DNA of 62,438 bases from a virus, in IMG/VR virus record IMGVR_UViG_3300027881_000013, positions 1 through 62,438 of that record. One strand, written 5' to 3'. This document shows positions 21,091 to 53,847 of this stretch, in pieces. The notes beneath the pieces are model-generated. The model saw only the letters and a list, made by a program, of their open reading frames with translations. It did not search any database and was not told the origin of the DNA. Every line of letters begins with the position of its first letter. Position 1 is the first letter of the stretch. The translations under genes and the position numbers were made by a program.

Positions 21091-21165
21091 TGGTGCCCCT
21101 GAGGAGGATCGAACTCCTGTTCCCGGATCGAAAATCCGGTATCCTAACCACTAGATGACAGGGGC
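21091..21165 (-). tRNA. tRNA-Glu (UUC)
   Basis: On the minus strand the acceptor GCCCCTG pairs with CAGGGGC, the anticodon loop TTTTCGA gives UUC, the T arm is GGAGTTCGATCCTCC, and CCA is encoded. All arms are intact. Glu GAA is a frequent codon in this AT-rich genome. Confidence 0.95.
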
Positions 21166-21167
21166 TA

Positions 21168-21254
21168 TGGTGCCGGGAGCGGGAGTCGAACCCGCACACC
21201 CAAATAGATAAGGGATTTTAAGTCCCTTGCGTCTACCAATTCCGCCATCCCGGC
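21168..21254 (-). tRNA. tRNA-Leu (UAA)
   Basis: An 87-base class II tRNA with a long variable arm. Acceptor GCCGGGA/TCCCGGC, anticodon loop CTTAAAA giving UAA, T arm GCGGGTTCGACTCCCGC, encoded CCA. It reads TTA, the main Leu codon in the AT-rich genes. Three bases separate it from the tRNA-Glu gene. Confidence 0.95.
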
Positions 21255-21261
21255 TGGTCTA

Positions 21262-21639
21262 TCATTGGTCACCACCACCCATAGCTACGTCAGATAGATT
21301 TTCATCTGTAAGGTATTCATGGTTTTCAGCATTCATAATTCTTCGTGCTCTATCTATAGGCATATCATGCGTGACTCGTTGCCACAATACCGTGTTAATT
21401 AATGGGTATGCGTCTTTATCTAATCCTAATCTAGACATTATATCAATAAATGACTCTTCACATATTTTATTTACTTTAGCGAGTCCCTCGCACCAGGTAT
21501 CTTGTTCAGACGATAGCTTCATTAAGAGCTTATTCTGTTCTGCATATAACTCAATTAATTGAGCCTGATAGGAGAAGGTACTATATGCAAAAAATGAAGT
21601 TAAAAGTACAAATACTGCTAGCCATGCTTTTAAGGTCAT
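21262..21639 (-). CDS. 125-residue membrane-anchored protein
   Basis: N-terminal signal anchor (MTLKAWLAVFVLLTSFFAYS), then a helical external part with two Cys (EQDTWCEGLAKVNKICEESF) and a Gly-rich acidic end. It ends seven bases before the tRNA-Leu gene. Function unknown; secretion or membrane tethering is likely. Confidence 0.65.
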   Translation of the reverse strand: MTLKAWLAVFVLLTSFFAYSTFSYQAQLIELYAEQNKLLMKLSSEQDTWCEGLAKVNKICEESFIDIMSRLGLDKDAYPLINTVLWQRVTHDMPIDRARRIMNAENHEYLTDENLSDVAMGGGDQ

Positions 21640-21640
21640 A

Positions 21641-21958
21641 CTACTTATCGCTTTTTTTGAGCAACTTCTCTAAAAATACAGGGGCAGGCGATTTTATATC
21701 TTTTAGCCCCTTACCTAATCTCTTATTTCCTTTGTACATAAAGTCATCAGAGTTCTTACTAATGAATTCATACTTAAATTCATAATTCTCGTTCTCATTT
21801 TTGGGATTCTCATTAAATAATCGAGCCTTTGTCCAGGATGGTATCATTTCTGCCATGCCAGCAGTCAGAAATTCGCACACTACACCACATTCATGACACC
21901 AGTATATTTTATAGCCCTCTGATGGCTCTTTGAGTAGTACTAACTTATGGACGTGCAT
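21641..21958 (-). CDS. 105-residue hypothetical protein with CxxC
   Basis: WCHECGVVCEFLTAG near residues 20-34 suggests a small metal knuckle; the rest is Asn/Glu/Lys-rich. It lies directly upstream of the membrane-anchored gene at 21262. Function unknown. Confidence 0.6.
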   Translation of the reverse strand: MHVHKLVLLKEPSEGYKIYWCHECGVVCEFLTAGMAEMIPSWTKARLFNENPKNENENYEFKYEFISKNSDDFMYKGNKRLGKGLKDIKSPAPVFLEKLLKKSDK

Positions 21959-22012
21959 ATTTATTTATAAGAATAATTGACTGTCTGTTTATTATGTGTT
22001 AAGGTGTTTAAT

Positions 22013-22378
22013 ATGGCAAATAGATCACCACTAACAGACGGGCAACAAGCAATTTTTAAATTTGTTGTTGCATTCATTAGAGAAAATGGCTTTGGGCCAA
22101 CAATTAGGGAGATCCAGGGGGAATTTAATTACAGGTCATCTAATTCTGTTGTGATTCATCTTAATAATTTGAGGTCAAAAGGTTATATAACTAAATCAAG
22201 TACAAAAGATAAAATGAAAACCAGAACTATTAGATTGGTTGATGACATTATTGGTAACTATACTATTGATACCGGCTTCTTGAATAAAGCAATTAAAAAT
22301 TTAAAAGAACGTGGTTATGAGATTGAAGCTAACCTCGCGGTTGAATTCCTTAAAGAATTAAAAGTAAACATAGTTTAA
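22013..22378 (+). CDS. LexA-like winged-helix regulator without peptidase domain
   Basis: 121 residues from ATG 22013 (AAGGTG upstream); an earlier GTG/ATG frame adds 12 unlikely residues. Residues 4-65 (LTDGQQAIFKFVVAFIRENG, GPTIREIQGEFNYRSSNSVV, LRSKGYITK) match the LexA N-terminal DNA-binding domain. The C-terminal part is a short helical segment with no Ser-Lys peptidase dyad, so it cannot self-cleave as LexA does. A phage repressor or activator is likely, and the dyads at 503-625 and the palindromes at 2550-2841 are candidate targets (inference). Divergent from the gene ending at 21958. Confidence 0.8.
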   Translation: MANRSPLTDGQQAIFKFVVAFIRENGFGPTIREIQGEFNYRSSNSVVIHLNNLRSKGYITKSSTKDKMKTRTIRLVDDIIGNYTIDTGFLNKAIKNLKERGYEIEANLAVEFLKELKVNIV

Positions 22379-22455
22379 TGGTGGACCCTGTAGGAGTCGA
22401 ACCTACGACCAATCGGTTATGAGCCGATAGCTCTAACCAACTGAGCTAAGGGTCC
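22379..22455 (-). tRNA. tRNA-Met (CAU)
   Basis: 77 bases; acceptor GGACCCT/AGGGTCC, anticodon loop CTCATAA giving CAU, T arm GTAGGTTCGACTCCTAC, encoded CCA. The G-C first pair excludes a bacterial initiator; elongator Met or a lysidine-modified Ile tRNA are both possible. Its 3' end touches the stop codon of the convergent LexA-like gene. Confidence 0.92.
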
Positions 22456-46898: not shown

Positions 46899-47027
46899 AT
46901 GTTTCATAAAACAGGTAAAACCACTACCTTAGGGGTATTGAAAAAAGACAAAGACAAAGATAAAACTGATAAAAAGCCAAAAGATAAAACTGATAATAAA
47001 GATAAGAAAGATCAAGTAAAACAATGA
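46899..47027 (+). CDS. 42-residue Lys/Asp-rich peptide
   Basis: GAGG eight bases before ATG. It has a basic start (MFHKTGKTTTLGVLKK), then alternating Lys and Asp (DKDKDKTDKKPKDKTDNKDK). The stop overlaps the start of the next gene (ATGA). Disordered polyampholyte; function unknown. The 95 bases before it hold no gene. Confidence 0.6.
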   Translation: MFHKTGKTTTLGVLKKDKDKDKTDKKPKDKTDNKDKKDQVKQ

Positions 47028-49744
47028 CGTTTATTAAGACTGCAGCAGTCCAGACTATTGCTGTCGCTGTGTTTGAGGACAACAGACTAACAAAGTCTGC
47101 TGCCTATGACGAAGATAGCACTAGTGAGTTTCTTAATGAACGTAAACCCATTGATATTAAAGCCGCGTTAGAGATCGTAGCTTCTGAATACGATATCTCA
47201 AGTAATCCCTCAGATTATATTTTTGAAGCAATTAGAGGGAACACAGCTAATGTACCTAATGAAAATAAAGACGCTTTCCATAAACATGAATTATTAAGAT
47301 TTGATGGTCGTTTAGGTAAGCAAGTCTATCGTACCTACGAAAACAAGCCCCACCACATTAACCATAGAGCGGAAAACCCCAAGAATGCTAGGGGTTTTAT
47401 TGTTGATGCTCATTATAATGACTCAACTCCTGCACTCGATGAATGTTCAAATCCAAATTGTGGCAATAAAACTGCTTCTGAAGAGGAACGAGATCCTGAA
47501 ACTGGCATTCACTGCAGAAAGTGTGGTGAGGTAGTTAAAGATGAATTCGTTGAGCTTCTTGTTGCAATAGATACTAAGAAAGATCCGACATTCGCTCGAG
47601 GCGTACAGGCTGGGATCCTTAAACATGGATCTATGGGCTGTTCATGCCTACGTACGAGATGTAATGTTTGTAATAAAGTTGCCTATAGTAGAAACGAATT
47701 TTGTGATCATATTAAAAATAAAGGTAAAGCTTACGATGAATCCGAACCTGGATTCAATCCTATTGCCTTTGTAATTGAGTATGGGAAAGACAAAACTGCT
47801 AAGGTAGCTAAGAAGATCGCCAAAGCCTATGAGTGGTGTGAAGGTGTCATCTACGACGAATATAGTCGTGTACATGACCCAGCAGATACAAAAGCTGAGC
47901 AATATGAAATTCTTCAGCTAAGTGCGAAGGTTGCTCAGTTAACTAGCGAAGATCAGCTGCAAAATGAATCTGACATACTAATACTTAGTCAAAAGGTAGC
48001 CGATCTCGAGAGGCGGGTGGGGGAGAAACTAAGCAAGGTAGCTCAGGCTACGCCTGAAATACCTGCCATGCCTCCCCCACCGCCTGGCTTACCTGGTCCA
48101 GGTTCTGCTGCACCAGGTCCCGTTGCGCCAGGTTTAGAGGATCCAACGTTAGGCTTAGAGGGTCCTCCACCTGAAGAAGATAAGAGTGAGGGTGGAGTAA
48201 CCGTCATTATAAATGCTGGGCCAGAAGGTGTAGAAGTCGAATCTCCCCAGCTTGAAGAAACAGCACTTGATAATAAGTCTATTGATGACTTACTGCCGGA
48301 AGATGTGAACGCCACACCTGCTGGTGTTGGTGAGATGATGTCACCAGCTGCTATGGGGCTTGAAGAGGGTCCTAAGGCTGTTCCGCCTAAACTTGGAAAT
48401 AAAGAAACCTCTGGAGGTTCCCCGATGCTTCGTTTTGCAGAGTCATACAAGCATTTAAAGGCGGAGATTACTAGCGCTGGTAATGTTCGCGTTTTTGATG
48501 CTGACGGTACCTTATTTGTTGTTAAGCCCGATAGTGTTGATACTAGCAAGGTTGCCAGTGTTGAGCCAGAGGATCTGGCTAAGAACGTTCTTACCACAAT
48601 CGCTCAGTATGGTGTTGGTACCGCTATCAATATGACCAGGGCTATTGTTGGTCCGCGTCTTGCTCAAGTCTTACAGTATTATCATGACGATATGACCGGT
48701 GTTGATCGTGGTGAGCCCACCGCACCAGTTTCTGGTGACGGCGATACAGATGCTAAGGATAAGCCTGCATCGCCTGACGATTCAGTTACTGCTGGTGGTG
48801 CTGACTCTGATCGTAAAGATGAATATGATAATACTGTCACGCTCAAGGACGATGCACTAAGTGATCGTGACTCCGATCTTGAAGATGAGCAAAACGATCG
48901 AGATCCTAATAGTCTGTCTACTGGTGATGATGAGGATTCTGACATGAAAGAAAAGCGTAAGGACTGGAGTTTGAGTCAGAGCGCTGTTGATGATGTCAGT
49001 ACCGATATGAAGAATGCTGCTAAGGACAAGAAGGACAAGAAGGACAAGGATTGTAAGAAATGCAAGTGTGATCCTTGCAAGTGTGATAAAGAGAAGAAGG
49101 CTGAAGCTTACGATATCAAGCAGCATGCTTCTAGAATCGAAACTCTCTATAAGGGTCGATTAGCTCAGAAGGTTGCAGAGCTTGAGGATGAGAAGAAGCA
49201 GTTCGTTAGTAATATGGCTGACAGGTTCGCCAGAGCCATCAAGCTCGTAGCTAAGCGGCAAGCTCTCAATCTCGAGTATTCTCCGATGAAGACTGCGATG
49301 GGTATTGCTCTCTGTAATCCTATGCCACTTGGTGAGGGTTATGAATACGCACCCATGGATCAGAAAACTGCAGTTTCTGTTGTAGAGGCCGCATTTACTA
49401 GTCCAATTATCGAGGGTACTGATAAGCCAGCTTGGGAAGCTTTTGTTGATGGTCTTATCGAACGTGCTGGTTCGGTTATGGAGTGGAATGATGAGACCTT
49501 AATGCAGGTTGAGGCAGACTTAGGTAATATTAAGACTGCTGCGGTTCCTTTGGATGAGTCCGCTATCGCAGTAGAAACTACTGGTAATGTGCAACTTCGG
49601 CAGGCTATGGCCAATGGTAATCTTCAGTTGAATCCGACTGAAGATGCTGGGCCAAAGACTGAGGCTGCTGGTGATAAACGAACAGCCATCAGAGATGCTG
49701 TAGGTGTAACGAAGGTGGCTGGTTTAGCCAATCTTGGGAGATAG
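47024..49744 (+). CDS. Prohead core or maturation-type protein with zinc cluster
   Basis: 906 residues, just before the capsid genes. Residues 100-260 (NKPHHINHRAENPKNARGFI, FVELLVAIDTKKDPTFARGV, GILKHGSMGCSCLRTRCNVC, NEFCDHIKNKG) resemble head-assembly proteins of large phages in which a SMGC-x-C segment is followed by a zinc cluster. A Pro-rich linker (PAMPPPPPGLPGPGSAAPGP) follows. After that come a GC-richer half with Asp/Ser-rich repeats, a C-K-C cluster (CKKCKCDPCKCDKEKK) near 685 and a final helical domain. Probably prohead core; a protease function is possible but no catalytic triad was established. Confidence 0.6.
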   Translation: MTFIKTAAVQTIAVAVFEDNRLTKSAAYDEDSTSEFLNERKPIDIKAALEIVASEYDISSNPSDYIFEAIRGNTANVPNENKDAFHKHELLRFDGRLGKQVYRTYENKPHHINHRAENPKNARGFIVDAHYNDSTPALDECSNPNCGNKTASEEERDPETGIHCRKCGEVVKDEFVELLVAIDTKKDPTFARGVQAGILKHGSMGCSCLRTRCNVCNKVAYSRNEFCDHIKNKGKAYDESEPGFNPIAFVIEYGKDKTAKVAKKIAKAYEWCEGVIYDEYSRVHDPADTKAEQYEILQLSAKVAQLTSEDQLQNESDILILSQKVADLERRVGEKLSKVAQATPEIPAMPPPPPGLPGPGSAAPGPVAPGLEDPTLGLEGPPPEEDKSEGGVTVIINAGPEGVEVESPQLEETALDNKSIDDLLPEDVNATPAGVGEMMSPAAMGLEEGPKAVPPKLGNKETSGGSPMLRFAESYKHLKAEITSAGNVRVFDADGTLFVVKPDSVDTSKVASVEPEDLAKNVLTTIAQYGVGTAINMTRAIVGPRLAQVLQYYHDDMTGVDRGEPTAPVSGDGDTDAKDKPASPDDSVTAGGADSDRKDEYDNTVTLKDDALSDRDSDLEDEQNDRDPNSLSTGDDEDSDMKEKRKDWSLSQSAVDDVSTDMKNAAKDKKDKKDKDCKKCKCDPCKCDKEKKAEAYDIKQHASRIETLYKGRLAQKVAELEDEKKQFVSNMADRFARAIKLVAKRQALNLEYSPMKTAMGIALCNPMPLGEGYEYAPMDQKTAVSVVEAAFTSPIIEGTDKPAWEAFVDGLIERAGSVMEWNDETLMQVEADLGNIKTAAVPLDESAIAVETTGNVQLRQAMANGNLQLNPTEDAGPKTEAAGDKRTAIRDAVGVTKVAGLANLGR

Positions 49745-50663: not shown

Positions 50664-51872
50664 ATGAGCGTAGTCAACCCTTATAAGCGCCTTGCTGCGG
50701 CTGGGGCCGAGACGCCTCCGCCTAAGGGCGTGGAAACCCCAACCATCGAGCGTCATGCTAGCAAGCAAGATGAGCAGCACTTTGATGCTGATGGTAAGTT
50801 TAACCCCACCGCATATGCTGGTGAGGTTACTCGTGACGGCGTACGTCAGGCAGTGGGTAACACCAATCTGTCGAATCGTATGTTCGATAAGACCGGCGAA
50901 GTCAACGCCTATGACGACAAGGATGCTTTGCAGCAGGTAGCGTATCTGCTTCAAAATGTCACTCGTAAGGCGTCTCCGGGCACCTTCTATCGTGAAGCTT
51001 CGAATCAGATGGATGCGGAAGATCGCCGCAAGGTTCTCGCTGCGGCGATGACCGATCCTACTGGTGAAGGTTTCGCGATTGTTGGCCAGGAGCTCTTGCT
51101 TCCGATCAAGGACATCGTGGATTACGAGGGCTGGGCTCGTAAGCTTTACCGCGTACGTCCCTTGGCTCAGGGTGAGCTTTTCCGCATCGCGAAGGACGTC
51201 CGCGCTACCGCATGGGTAGTCGGTCAGGATGGTCAGTCCATTGAGTCCAGACTCCATGGTCGGTTCATTCAGCCTTCGGAGTTCAAGGTAACCGCATTCC
51301 CCACCGTGGACATCGAGGACATCTATCAGATGAACTACGATGTTCTCGATCGCGCTCAGGACACTGCTCGGCAGGAGATTGAGCTCGAAGAGGACAAGCG
51401 TGGCCTCGCGCTTCTGGATAGAGCGGCGCAGACTGTCAATGCGGAAACCATCTTCACTACGCTGGGCATCTCGGCGTTTGAGGATGTTCGCTTCCAGGTT
51501 GAGCGTCATCGCCTCATGGTTGAGAAGTTCTTTATCAACCGTGCCGAGCTTTCTGATGTCGTGAAGACGATGAGTGCGGCTGTTGATCCGGTAACCGAGC
51601 GCGAGTTAATCCTCGCCGGTTATATCGGCAACATCCTCAATGCTCAGATCATCACTGCGGCTGGTACCGGTGTTGAGGAAGTCGTACCTGCGGGTACCTT
51701 CTACGCCGTCACCGGCAGTGAGTACCTCGGCGAGATGGGCGTACGTGTTGAGCTCTTCAGTGAGCCCTTCAACATGTTCAGCCATCGTCGCCTGGTCAAG
51801 GGATGGGCATTTGGCGAGATCATCGGCTTCGGTATTCCGAACCCGAGAGCGGCAGCCAAGGGCCGGAAGTAG
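50664..51872 (+). CDS. Major capsid protein
   Basis: 402 residues; AGGAG before ATG. N-terminal charged arm (residues 1-100), then the HK97-type body: YREASNQMDAEDRRKVLAAA, DPTGEGFAIVGQELLLPIKD, RVRPLAQGELFRIAKDVRAT, then a spine helix and YVSS-like turn replaced by FIQPSEFKVTAFPTVDIEDI. The C-terminal domain ends with FSEPFNMFSHRRLVKGWAFG. GC-rich, regular codon use and a strong terminator mark high expression. Position after the portal and prohead core genes supports the call. Confidence 0.85.
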   Translation: MSVVNPYKRLAAAGAETPPPKGVETPTIERHASKQDEQHFDADGKFNPTAYAGEVTRDGVRQAVGNTNLSNRMFDKTGEVNAYDDKDALQQVAYLLQNVTRKASPGTFYREASNQMDAEDRRKVLAAAMTDPTGEGFAIVGQELLLPIKDIVDYEGWARKLYRVRPLAQGELFRIAKDVRATAWVVGQDGQSIESRLHGRFIQPSEFKVTAFPTVDIEDIYQMNYDVLDRAQDTARQEIELEEDKRGLALLDRAAQTVNAETIFTTLGISAFEDVRFQVERHRLMVEKFFINRAELSDVVKTMSAAVDPVTERELILAGYIGNILNAQIITAAGTGVEEVVPAGTFYAVTGSEYLGEMGVRVELFSEPFNMFSHRRLVKGWAFGEIIGFGIPNPRAAAKGRK

Positions 51873-51893
51873 TAACTAGCCTTCTAGGCATCT

Positions 51894-51934
51894 AGCCCGG
51901 TAGATCAGTTCCACCACTGGTCTACCGGGCTTTA
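51894..51934 (+). terminator. Strong terminator after the major capsid gene
   Basis: AGCCCGGTAGA and TCTACCGGGCT form a perfect 11-bp stem around a 16-base loop, followed by TTTA. The strongest rho-independent-type signal in the window. Confidence 0.85.
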
Positions 51935-51968
51935 CCTCTGTTTAACAGATTTACCTCTGTTTAACAGA
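51931..51968 (+). repeat. Exact tandem 19-bp repeat
   Basis: TTTACCTCTGTTTAACAGA occurs twice head to tail. Each unit contains the palindrome TCTGTTTAACAGA, so each can form a small hairpin. It marks the 5' edge of the structured element that precedes the 52088 ORF. Confidence 0.9.
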
Positions 51969-52087
51969 GAGGTCGCAAATGCGGCAAATAAACTGTTCCT
52001 TCTAACATGGTGTTAGAACAGAACATGGTGGGTTAAATTCCCGCATCCTCGGCAAGGATGCAAATGGATTGAGGGACTGCTCTGTGT
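51931..52087 (+). ncRNA. HEARO/omega-RNA-like structured element
   Basis: About 155 bases packed with stems that end at the start codon of the next ORF: CTCTGTT/AACAGAG (51955-51969), CGC/GCG (51974-51983), TTCTAACA/TGTTAGAA (52000-52018), GTGGG/CCCGC (52028-52044) and GCATCCT/AGGATGC (52043-52061). It then runs through AAATGGATTGAGGGACTGCT to GTGTATG. The GAACATGGTG, AAATGGATTGAGGGACTGCT and GTGTATGG pieces resemble what I remember of HEARO RNAs, which lie against the start of IscB-type ORFs. The class call is from memory and needs a covariance search. Confidence 0.55.
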
Positions 52088-53038
52088 ATGGGCAAGCCAT
52101 CTCAGGATGTGGTATTGGTAGTAGATTCCGAGAAGAGATTCTTGGAGTACATCCATCCTGGAAGGGCGCGAAGGCTGTTAAGAGAGAAGAAAGCCAAAAT
52201 TCACTCGAGGCGACCCTTTGCAATTATGCTCTTCAAGACAGTATCGGCCTCCTCAATCAGGAGAAGAAAAGTTATGCCAATTCCTAGAAACTTCACTGAA
52301 TTCTTCAAAGAAGAGCGAGACATTTACGTACAGAATCTCGCAAATGCACAAGTCTCGTGCGAATTTCCGATAGCTCCAAATCGGAATGAAGGGTTTCTGT
52401 TTTCAAATAACAGAGATCCGGTAAACCTCACACAGTTCATACCCTTTGACGCCATCAAAGCATCCATGGACTTCAGAAAGATGTTGAGTCGCCGCCCGCC
52501 GGCACTCCAACTTCTTACTGAAGAAGAGTACAATGCATATTTTGCCGGTAAGGCAAAAAATTCCAATATGATGGATACTGATGGTAAGCCGGATGTTGAT
52601 GCAGCTATTGATGCTTCTGAGGAGCGTCGTCGTCGTACCTCTGATAGAAACATGCGGGAGCCAGTTGCTGCTAGTGCCCCAGAACCCATTCATGAGGTTA
52701 TTGAGAAGGGTTCTGGTCCTGGTGGTGCTGCTCGTTTTGGTGAAAGAAATCGCGTAGCGCATAATGACGTTGTTGGTGAGGATGAGGTTATTAATCCTCG
52801 AGTGCTTCACTTCTGTAATCAGGTTAAGGCTGAGATTGAAGAATCTGAGCGTATGCCTGCTGCTGAACTGTTAGAATCGCTGCAGGACATTCCTGATCTG
52901 GGTCTTGATGATTTTGAGCATATTCGAGCTCATGCGTATTACAAGACTGTAAAGAAGTGGGCCCAAAAGCAAGCGGCAGAGTTGGTCTCTCATGAGATGG
53001 ATGATGAAGCTGAAGAGGCGTCTATCGCACAGGACTAA
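52088..53038 (+). CDS. RRXRR/PLMP-like N-terminus fused to a structural-type protein
   Basis: 316 residues from ATG 52088. Residues 7-50 (DVVLVVDSEKRFLEYIHPGR, ARRLLREKKAKIHSRRPFAI) follow the start of RRXRR/IscB proteins: a VFVLD-like strand, then HPARARKLL, G/K-KA-V and RRxPF-I. No RuvC or HNH residues follow. From residue 63 (MPIPRNFTEFFKEERDIYVQ) the sequence looks like an ordinary phage head or neck protein, helical and acidic, and AGGAG lies about 10 bases before that ATG (52274), so two products are possible. The upstream structured RNA-like element ends exactly at this start. Confidence 0.6.
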   Translation: MGKPSQDVVLVVDSEKRFLEYIHPGRARRLLREKKAKIHSRRPFAIMLFKTVSASSIRRRKVMPIPRNFTEFFKEERDIYVQNLANAQVSCEFPIAPNRNEGFLFSNNRDPVNLTQFIPFDAIKASMDFRKMLSRRPPALQLLTEEEYNAYFAGKAKNSNMMDTDGKPDVDAAIDASEERRRRTSDRNMREPVAASAPEPIHEVIEKGSGPGGAARFGERNRVAHNDVVGEDEVINPRVLHFCNQVKAEIEESERMPAAELLESLQDIPDLGLDDFEHIRAHAYYKTVKKWAQKQAAELVSHEMDDEAEEASIAQD

Positions 53039-53042
53039 ATGA

Positions 53043-53450
53043 ATGAACGTTGAACATCTATTAGTAGCTAGGAAACTAGTATTAGCTGCAAATGGTGGTA
53101 CAGCCACTCTTGCATTAGAGGCTGGAACACCATACCGCCATTATTGTGCGTGGCTAGTTGTTGATGCTTTTGGTCTTACTACTGATACACCAGATGTAGA
53201 TGTTCAACCAAAATTCGGTGGCGAAGTCGATGGTGCTGTCGTTAACGTTACTGATAGAGTTCCAACTAAAGTTTTTCAGGTAATAGTGGAAGAGATTAGA
53301 CCTCCTACGAGGGGATACGTTAAGCATCCCAATGACGCATCCCCTCCTCTTCCTCTTAAGTCTGAACTTGAAATTACTAATAGTCATCTTACCATAGAAG
53401 TACAATTAACTGTATATATGATGGCAACAGCTACTATAGGTGGTGCATAA
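53043..53450 (+). CDS. Virion-module protein, first of a tandem pair
   Basis: 135 residues, beta-rich (MNVEHLLVARKLVLAANGGT; EAGTPYRHYCAWLVVDAF; EEIRPPTRGYVKHPND; LKSELEITNS). It is clearly paralogous with the next gene across its whole length. Starts 4 bases after the previous stop, without a clear ribosome site. Structural role is inferred from position. Confidence 0.65.
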   Translation: MNVEHLLVARKLVLAANGGTATLALEAGTPYRHYCAWLVVDAFGLTTDTPDVDVQPKFGGEVDGAVVNVTDRVPTKVFQVIVEEIRPPTRGYVKHPNDASPPLPLKSELEITNSHLTIEVQLTVYMMATATIGGA

Positions 53451-53451
53451 T

Positions 53452-53847
53452 ATGAACGTTGAACATCTATTAGTAGCTAGAAGAGTAGTTTTAGAGGCAA
53501 CTGGTGGCGCAGACATTGTGACTGTAGCAGTAGAATCTGGTACTCCATATAGACACTACATGGCGTGGGTAAAGGTTTATGCTACTACTATCAATGTTAG
53601 TGTCCAACCCCTATTTGGTGGTCAAAATGATGGCGCTGCGGTAGTAGTTAATACTGCACCACCAAATAAGGTTATCCAGGTACCAATTGAAGAAATCAGA
53701 CCTCCTACCAATAATATTCAAAAACATCCAGATGATATGTCACCACCTATAGTTCTTAAGAGTGAACTTCAAATAACTAATAGTGCGGCAGTTCCTGCAG
53801 TTGTAGATGTTTGGATGATTGCAGCTGCCACACCAGGAGGCGCATAA
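53452..53847 (+). CDS. Virion-module protein, second of a tandem pair
   Basis: 131 residues from ATG 53452 (MNVEHLLVARRVVLEATGGA). It shares GTPYRHY, FGG, EEIRPPT, KHP-D and LKSEL-ITNS with the preceding product, so a tandem gene duplication is evident. ACCAGGAGG near its end serves the next gene. Confidence 0.65.
   Translation: MNVEHLLVARRVVLEATGGADIVTVAVESGTPYRHYMAWVKVYATTINVSVQPLFGGQNDGAAVVVNTAPPNKVIQVPIEEIRPPTNNIQKHPDDMSPPIVLKSELQITNSAAVPAVVDVWMIAAATPGGA

What the first reader, a model, noticed from the sequence alone, without database searches (positions are those of the whole stretch)
51931..53038. HEARO/omega-RNA-like element fused in context to an RRXRR/PLMP N-terminus but no nuclease
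Seen: directly after the capsid terminator lies a compact chain of five stem-loops ending at the start codon of an ORF whose residues 7-50 follow the VFVLD / HPARARKLL / RRxPF-I pattern that opens IscB-family proteins. Known: IscB, IsrB and IshB genes are preceded by omega RNA (first described as HEARO RNA) and their N-terminal PLMP domain is followed by RuvC and/or HNH parts. Here neither follows; the frame passes through a 12-residue basic linker into a phage head-type protein. Inference: either a decayed IscB insertion captured by a structural gene, or a domesticated RNA-protein pair that controls or accompanies capsid-module expression. I know of no described PLMP-only protein with its own omega-like RNA in a virion operon.
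Basis: partly seen in the sequence, partly recalled or inferred. Interest (0 to 1): 0.87.

Follow-up and report, generated by a model that had tools for sequence, protein, structure and literature searches.

The report
Phage gene with captured IscB domain
A group of tailed phages has taken the RNA-contacting front domain of an IscB (Cas9-ancestor) nuclease, joined it to an unrelated phage protein, and in most of them placed a new, strongly conserved folded RNA right in front of it; this suggests a domesticated RNA-protein pair, probably a self-regulating switch, rather than a broken gene-cutting enzyme.

Summary
The core observation is real. ORF 52088-53038 opens with an IscB-type PLMP/RRXRR domain (residues 9-57, Pfam E 1.1e-8, above cutoff) with no RuvC or HNH after it. 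It is preceded by a ~210-nt folded RNA (z -7.3). Seven other phage contigs carry the same RNA plus fusion: 30 of 41 base pairs covary, 96% of cells pair, and the RNA ends at a helix holding the start codon. Two more divergent relatives keep the fusion without a detectable RNA. The PLMP codons are under strong purifying selection (dN/dS 0.026 against the nearest relative), so this is not decay. Corrections: the 'capsid terminator' is helix 1 of the RNA (no T-tract); the RNA does not match HEARO/omega RNA, which Rfam does find at most genuine IscB loci tested; the C-terminal part is not a known head protein but a distant relative of jumbo-phage family phrog_17686, which lacks PLMP. All ten fusions have an internal ATG with a Shine-Dalgarno-like sequence at the domain junction, predicting a PLMP-less second product. 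Best reading: an exapted PLMP domain with a cis leader RNA, most likely controlling its own translation (mechanism about 40%). Protein-RNA binding is inferred, not shown.

The parts
51894..52105 (+). Conserved structured leader RNA (covariance-model match 51888-52125); no Rfam family
   Evidence: Fold z -7.30; 41 pairs, 30 with two-sided changes, 96.0% of cells paired, 0/500 shuffles on four of five measures; held-out locus L022 found at E 4.5e-39
51894..51931 (+).
   Evidence: 15 modelled pairs, 14 with two-sided changes; no terminator-like site; sequence
51936..51969 (+). Helix 2; in this phage it holds a duplicated unit TTTACCTCTGTTTAACAGA
51972..51985 (+). Small hairpin, present in this phage and seen in single-sequence folds of relatives
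51994..52025 (+). Helix 3, UGUYC/GRACA with inner hairpin
   Evidence: 6 of 8 modelled pairs with two-sided changes, 96.8% of cells paired
52030..52042 (+). Helix 4, GGG/CCC hairpin (invariant, so no evidence either way)
52043..52061 (+). Helix 5 hairpin
   Evidence: 7 pairs, 6 with two-sided changes, 100% of cells paired
52069..52105 (+). Terminal hairpin holding GAGG (SD-like) in the stem and A-U of the AUG start codon in the loop; the inner 3-bp helix 6 covaries (GCC/GGC versus CUC/GAG), the outer part is predicted only in some members
52088..53038 (+). 316-aa fusion protein
52112..52258 (+). PLMP/RRXRR (IscB N-terminal) domain, residues 9-57; the PLMP motif itself reads FLEY
   Evidence: dN/dS 0.026 against L002; the seven best Foldseek matches are IscB chains, weakly
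52259..52276 (+). Conserved internal SD-like AGGAGA (52259-52264) and ATG (52274) at the domain junction; predicted second start
   Evidence: All 10 members have an SD-like match of at least 4; 8 of 10 have at least 5, against 4 of 69 other in-frame ATGs
52274..53038 (+). C-terminal region, distant homologue of phrog_17686 (PaBG gp154, Dickeya phage JA11 gp207), function unknown
   Evidence: hhalign probability 91.5, E 8.6e-7; Foldseek to standalone jumbo-phage proteins, best E 3.6e-6
50664..51872 (+). Upstream HK97-fold major capsid protein
   Evidence: phrog_2522 E 1.3e-56; NF042927 E 3.4e-43

Best explanation
A phage lineage captured the N-terminal PLMP domain of an IscB-type protein and fused it to a phrog_17686-like phage protein; the nuclease parts are gone. 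In one clade the gene carries a dedicated ~210-nt leader RNA that ends in a hairpin around the start codon. Most likely the PLMP domain of the product binds its own leader near the start codon and limits translation of the long form. The internal ATG with its SD-like site would supply a short, PLMP-free form. Shown: the domain, the RNA structure, selection on the domain, and conservation of the internal start signal. Inferred: that PLMP binds this RNA, that binding represses translation, and that two products are made.
For: PLMP match, purifying selection in codons that lie almost wholly outside the RNA, and covarying RNA found at one place per record, always directly before this gene, even when other sequence separates it from the capsid gene. 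Helix 6 contains the AUG and covaries. In IsrB and IscB the PLMP domain contacts the terminal hairpins of the omega RNA; in IsrB that hairpin holds the SD sequence just upstream of its own ORF (PMC9581776; PMC9640706). Internal SD-like site plus ATG in all ten members. PLMP-free homologues of the C-terminal part exist.
Against: Two divergent relatives (L001, L063) keep the PLMP fusion but show no match to the RNA model, and the L063 leader folds no better than shuffles, so PLMP does not strictly need this RNA. The PLMP motif is replaced by FLEY. PLMP-omegaRNA contacts are described as mainly sequence-independent. The full start-codon hairpin is clear in four members and weaker in the other four. 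No binding or expression data.
Confidence: 0.4

Rival explanations
1. A trans-acting ribonucleoprotein: the RNA is processed from the mRNA, bound by the PLMP domain, and serves as a scaffold or cofactor for the C-terminal domain (for example in DNA metabolism, packaging or assembly), without a guide.
For: Large structured RNA with far more helices than simple SD masking needs; IscB and IsrB work as RNPs with an upstream-encoded RNA; relatives of the C-terminal domain sit beside primase genes.
Against: The RNA always lies in cis and ends inside the ORF, one copy per record; two PLMP fusions have no detectable RNA.
Confidence: 0.22
2. The leader RNA regulates the gene independently of PLMP (ligand, temperature, RNase or ribosome control), and the PLMP domain does something else, such as protein-protein contact.
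For: RNA and PLMP are uncoupled in L001 and L063; in IsrB the PLMP domain mainly braces RuvC and TI; the PLMP motif is changed.
Against: It leaves the combination of an omega-RNA-associated domain and an upstream RNA in the omega position to coincidence.
Confidence: 0.28
3. A living RNA-guided system: the RNA is a divergent omega RNA with a guide 5' of helix 1, and the protein is a nuclease-less RNA-guided DNA binder (TldR-like).
For: Order of RNA then PLMP ORF as in IscB; the leader has a pseudoknot-capable loop (sequence).
Against: No RuvC, bridge helix, TI or HNH; no HEARO match; the 20 nt before helix 1 have no target in the window better than chance (6 mismatches); RNA model does not hit IscB loci.
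Confidence: 0.04
4. A decaying IscB insertion that happens to read into a structural gene.
For: Truncated domain, no nuclease.
Against: Same fusion in ten phage contigs, dN/dS 0.026 in the domain, no HEARO remnant.
Confidence: 0.02

Closest known systems
IscB / IsrB / IshB OMEGA proteins with omega RNA (HEARO, RF02033)
   Same: Homologous N-terminal PLMP/RRXRR domain; structured RNA immediately upstream, running up to or into the start codon region
   Different: No RuvC, bridge helix, HNH or TI parts; PLMP motif is FLEY; RNA not recognised by the HEARO model; no guide evidence
TldR (nuclease-dead TnpB homologues exapted as RNA-guided repressors; recalled, not tested here)
   Same: Domestication of a transposon RNA-guided protein for another role
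   Different: Derived from TnpB and keeps the whole RNA-guided body; here only a 50-residue domain is kept and fused to an unrelated protein
Autoregulatory leader RNAs of ribosomal proteins and of T4 RegA/gp32 (general knowledge)
   Same: Proposed logic: the product binds a structure at its own start site
   Different: The RNA-binding part would be an IscB-derived domain; the RNA is larger and new
phrog_17686 (PaBG gp154, JA11 gp207)
   Same: Homologous to the C-terminal region
   Different: Stand-alone, no PLMP domain, no R1 RNA, located beside primase-type genes

Membership tests
RRXRR / PLMP domain (PF14239, first ~50 positions) | Profile match above curated cutoff | tested here: met
   35.6 bits against 25; 8 of 8 clade members at E <= 0.001; the more divergent L001 is below cutoff
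RRXRR / PLMP domain (PF14239, first ~50 positions) | PLMP sequence motif | tested here: not met
   KRFLEY in place of RPLxP
RRXRR / PLMP domain (PF14239, first ~50 positions) | PLMP fold | tested here: inconclusive
   Model pLDDT 62; the seven best PDB matches are all IscB chains but E > 1
IscB / IsrB / IshB | RuvC and/or HNH domain after PLMP | tested here: not met
   No match beyond model position 49 of NF040563 or PF14239
HEARO / omega RNA (RF02033) | Covariance-model score | tested here: not met
   No match at E <= 10, while most IscB loci give 104-145 bits
HEARO / omega RNA (RF02033) | Guide segment directed at a target | tested here: inconclusive
   No target in the 62-kb record for the 20 nt before helix 1; RNA ends not mapped
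HEARO / omega RNA (RF02033) | Nexus-type pseudoknot | tested here: inconclusive
   CCACC loop and GGUGG are complementary but invariant in the aligned RNAs; in L001 the loop CGACGT and downstream ACGTCG are complementary, a single case that could be chance
Intrinsic terminator | Hairpin followed by T-tract | tested here: not met
   None found in 51600-52400; tail is TTTACC
phrog_17686 | Profile-profile homology over most of the length | tested here: met
   195 columns, E 8.6e-7; direct hmmscan only marginal, E 0.012 in L018 and none in the window protein

The most novel reading that the evidence does not exclude
A new class of phage ribonucleoprotein in which an IscB-derived PLMP domain carries a previously undescribed, non-HEARO structured RNA as a working cofactor for a non-nuclease protein: an OMEGA descendant that lost guiding and cutting and kept only RNA holding.
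Probability: 0.22. Interest if true: 0.88.

Novelty: new variant of a known kind. Interest (0 to 1): 0.72.

Why it matters
PLMP is the one OMEGA domain lost on the way to Cas9, and its own role is hard to study inside the nuclease. Here nature has isolated it from the nuclease, next to a conserved RNA, in a short gene. If the pair binds, it shows that PLMP alone is a portable RNA-recognition module and gives a simple test of whether IscB-type proteins control their own translation through the RNA next to the start codon. The RNA is also a new covarying family absent from Rfam 15.

Tried and rejected
RNA-pattern scan of genome contigs: four hits, all unrelated on inspection. PLMP profile over 299 genomes of one phylum: one weak partial match; no cellular relative. 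Window PLMP (66 aa) in phages and plasmids: only IscB genes and Rctr197k. Search near the capsid gene of PaBG, Motura, Afa-NA1, JA11 and phage G for the C-terminal domain: none there; relatives in PaBG and JA11 lie elsewhere. PDB Foldseek of the full model: nothing. RNA model against 14 IscB loci and jumbo-phage loci: nothing. L001 leader as a reduced form of the RNA: only fragments at 3-4 bits, rejected as unproven. Two paper searches for a PLMP-only protein or a phage leader of this kind gave nothing relevant; the library is incomplete.

Full report
OBSERVATION. The sequence at 51894-52105 folds into a chain of hairpins (MFE -90.1 kcal/mol, z -7.30 against 200 dinucleotide shuffles). The last hairpin holds an SD-like GAGG in its stem and the A and U of the AUG at 52088 in its loop. 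The ORF 52088-53038 (316 aa) matches Pfam RRXRR PF14239 at residues 9-57 (E 1.1e-8, above the curated cutoff) and the first 49 positions only of the NCBIfam IscB model (E 7e-9). A profile of phage PLMP segments alone finds solved IscB chains in the PDB sequences (E 9e-5). An AlphaFold2 model of the segment is only moderately confident (pLDDT 62), but its seven best Foldseek matches among 350,542 PDB chains are all IscB, each with E above 1. No nuclease domain follows.

FAMILY. Protein scans of IMG/VR and GenBank phages found nine other contigs with the same fusion: L002, L003, L015, L016, L017, L018, L022, L063 and L001 (Virus Rctr197k). No scan returned a close homologue of the C-terminal part without the PLMP part, although two of the scans used C-terminal patterns. 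The nearest pair (window and L002) has 16 synonymous and 2 nonsynonymous differences in PLMP codons 9-57, dN/dS 0.026, lower than the 0.061 of the C-terminal region. These codons start at 52112, after the RNA ends at about 52105, so the signal is not a by-product of RNA conservation. Decay is therefore rejected.

THE RNA. A covariance model R1 built from seven members finds the eighth, L022, which was obtained independently through the protein (E 4.5e-39). Part of that score comes from the first codons included in the model, but the helices also match. Over whole records the model finds exactly one RNA per phage, always at this locus. On eight sequences, 96.0% of cells form standard pairs (shuffle mean 79.9%), 30 of 41 pairs have two-sided changes (shuffle mean 15.1), and sliding the partners by 1-3 columns drops pairing to 38-47%. 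The alignment was fitted to the model, which favours the structure, but RNAalifold on the earlier unfitted alignment gave 27 of 41 pairs with compensatory changes. In L002 and L015 about 0.65 kb separates the capsid gene from the RNA, so the RNA belongs to the PLMP gene. It is not a 3' element of the capsid gene.

NOT HEARO. Rfam gives no HEARO match for this RNA even at E 10, yet HEARO scores 104-145 bits at most of the real IscB loci examined, including IscBs only about 35% identical to the query used. R1 in turn finds nothing at IscB loci. A general resemblance remains (stem, then a strand able to pair with an upstream loop, then a start-codon hairpin), but the CCACC/GGUGG pairing never varies in the clade and so is untested. 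The RNA is a new family; homology to omega RNA is neither shown nor excluded.

LIMITS OF THE PAIRING. The two most divergent fusions, L001 and L063, have no R1 match even with filters off, and the L063 leader is no more stable than shuffles. The PLMP fusion therefore extends beyond the RNA as now recognisable. Either the RNA is a later addition or it has diverged beyond detection.

THE C-TERMINAL DOMAIN. No head-protein family matches. The structural model (residues 68-187 mostly at pLDDT 70-87) matches stand-alone 200-240-aa proteins of jumbo phages including Motura, PaBG and BcepSaruman (best E 3.6e-6). Profile comparison with PaBG gp154 and JA11 gp207 (phrog_17686) gives E 8.6e-7 over 195 columns. 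PaBG gp154 lies near a primase and a RuvC gene, JA11 gp207 beside a primase. They carry no PLMP domain, so PLMP was probably added to a pre-existing phage protein. Function is unknown; 'head-type' rests on gene position only.

INTERNAL START. Every member has an in-frame ATG at the PLMP/C-terminal junction with an SD-like sequence. Eight of ten have a match of at least 5 nt, against 4 of 69 other in-frame ATGs. In the clade of eight the SD overlaps conserved Arg codons, which weakens the statistic, but L001 and L063 lack that conserved Arg run and still have GGAG plus ATG. Two products are predicted.

MECHANISM. In IsrB the PLMP domain (an IF3-N-like fold) contacts the terminal hairpins of the omega RNA, one of which contains the SD sequence just upstream of the IsrB ORF (PMC9581776). 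In OgeuIscB it recognises the terminal hairpins mainly without sequence specificity (PMC9640706). By analogy the phage PLMP domain probably binds the start-codon end of its own leader and tunes translation of the long form, while the internal start supplies a short form. This is inference: binding and regulation are untested, and the PLMP motif itself is changed to FLEY. Rivals are a trans-acting RNP and a leader that acts without PLMP; a guided system is unlikely.

VERDICT. A real, conserved, selected feature: an exapted OMEGA domain in a non-nuclease phage protein, with a new structured RNA in one clade. New variant of a known kind (domesticated transposon RNA-protein module combined with a leader RNA).

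Noticed in passing
53043-53450 and 53440-53847: Two tandem paralogous 135-aa proteins (MNVEHLLVARR...) follow the fusion gene; L015 also has two copies, L002 one. No confident family match.
   Followed up: partly
51932-51969: A 19-nt unit TTTACCTCTGTTTAACAGA is duplicated in helix 2 of the RNA in this phage only, enlarging the hairpin without breaking it.
   Followed up: partly
47024-49744: A 906-aa ORF joins a head-maturation-protease-like start (phrog_18299) to a long Pro/Gly-rich and acidic region, possibly protease plus scaffold in one protein.
   Followed up: no
L044 1848-2519 (PaBG gp154) and L045 1947-2624 (JA11 gp207): phrog_17686 proteins of jumbo phages, relatives of the C-terminal domain, lie near primase genes (and a RuvC gene in PaBG), with a gene annotated 'CRISPR/Cas system associated' close by.
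   Followed up: partly
L055 1255-1878: In Candidatus Chlorohelix a HEARO RNA is followed by a reading frame matching only the first ~130 residues of IscB, with no annotated gene; possibly a truncated IscB with intact RNA.
   Followed up: no
21091-22455, minus strand: Three phage tRNA genes: Glu(ttc), Leu(taa), Met(cat).
   Followed up: no
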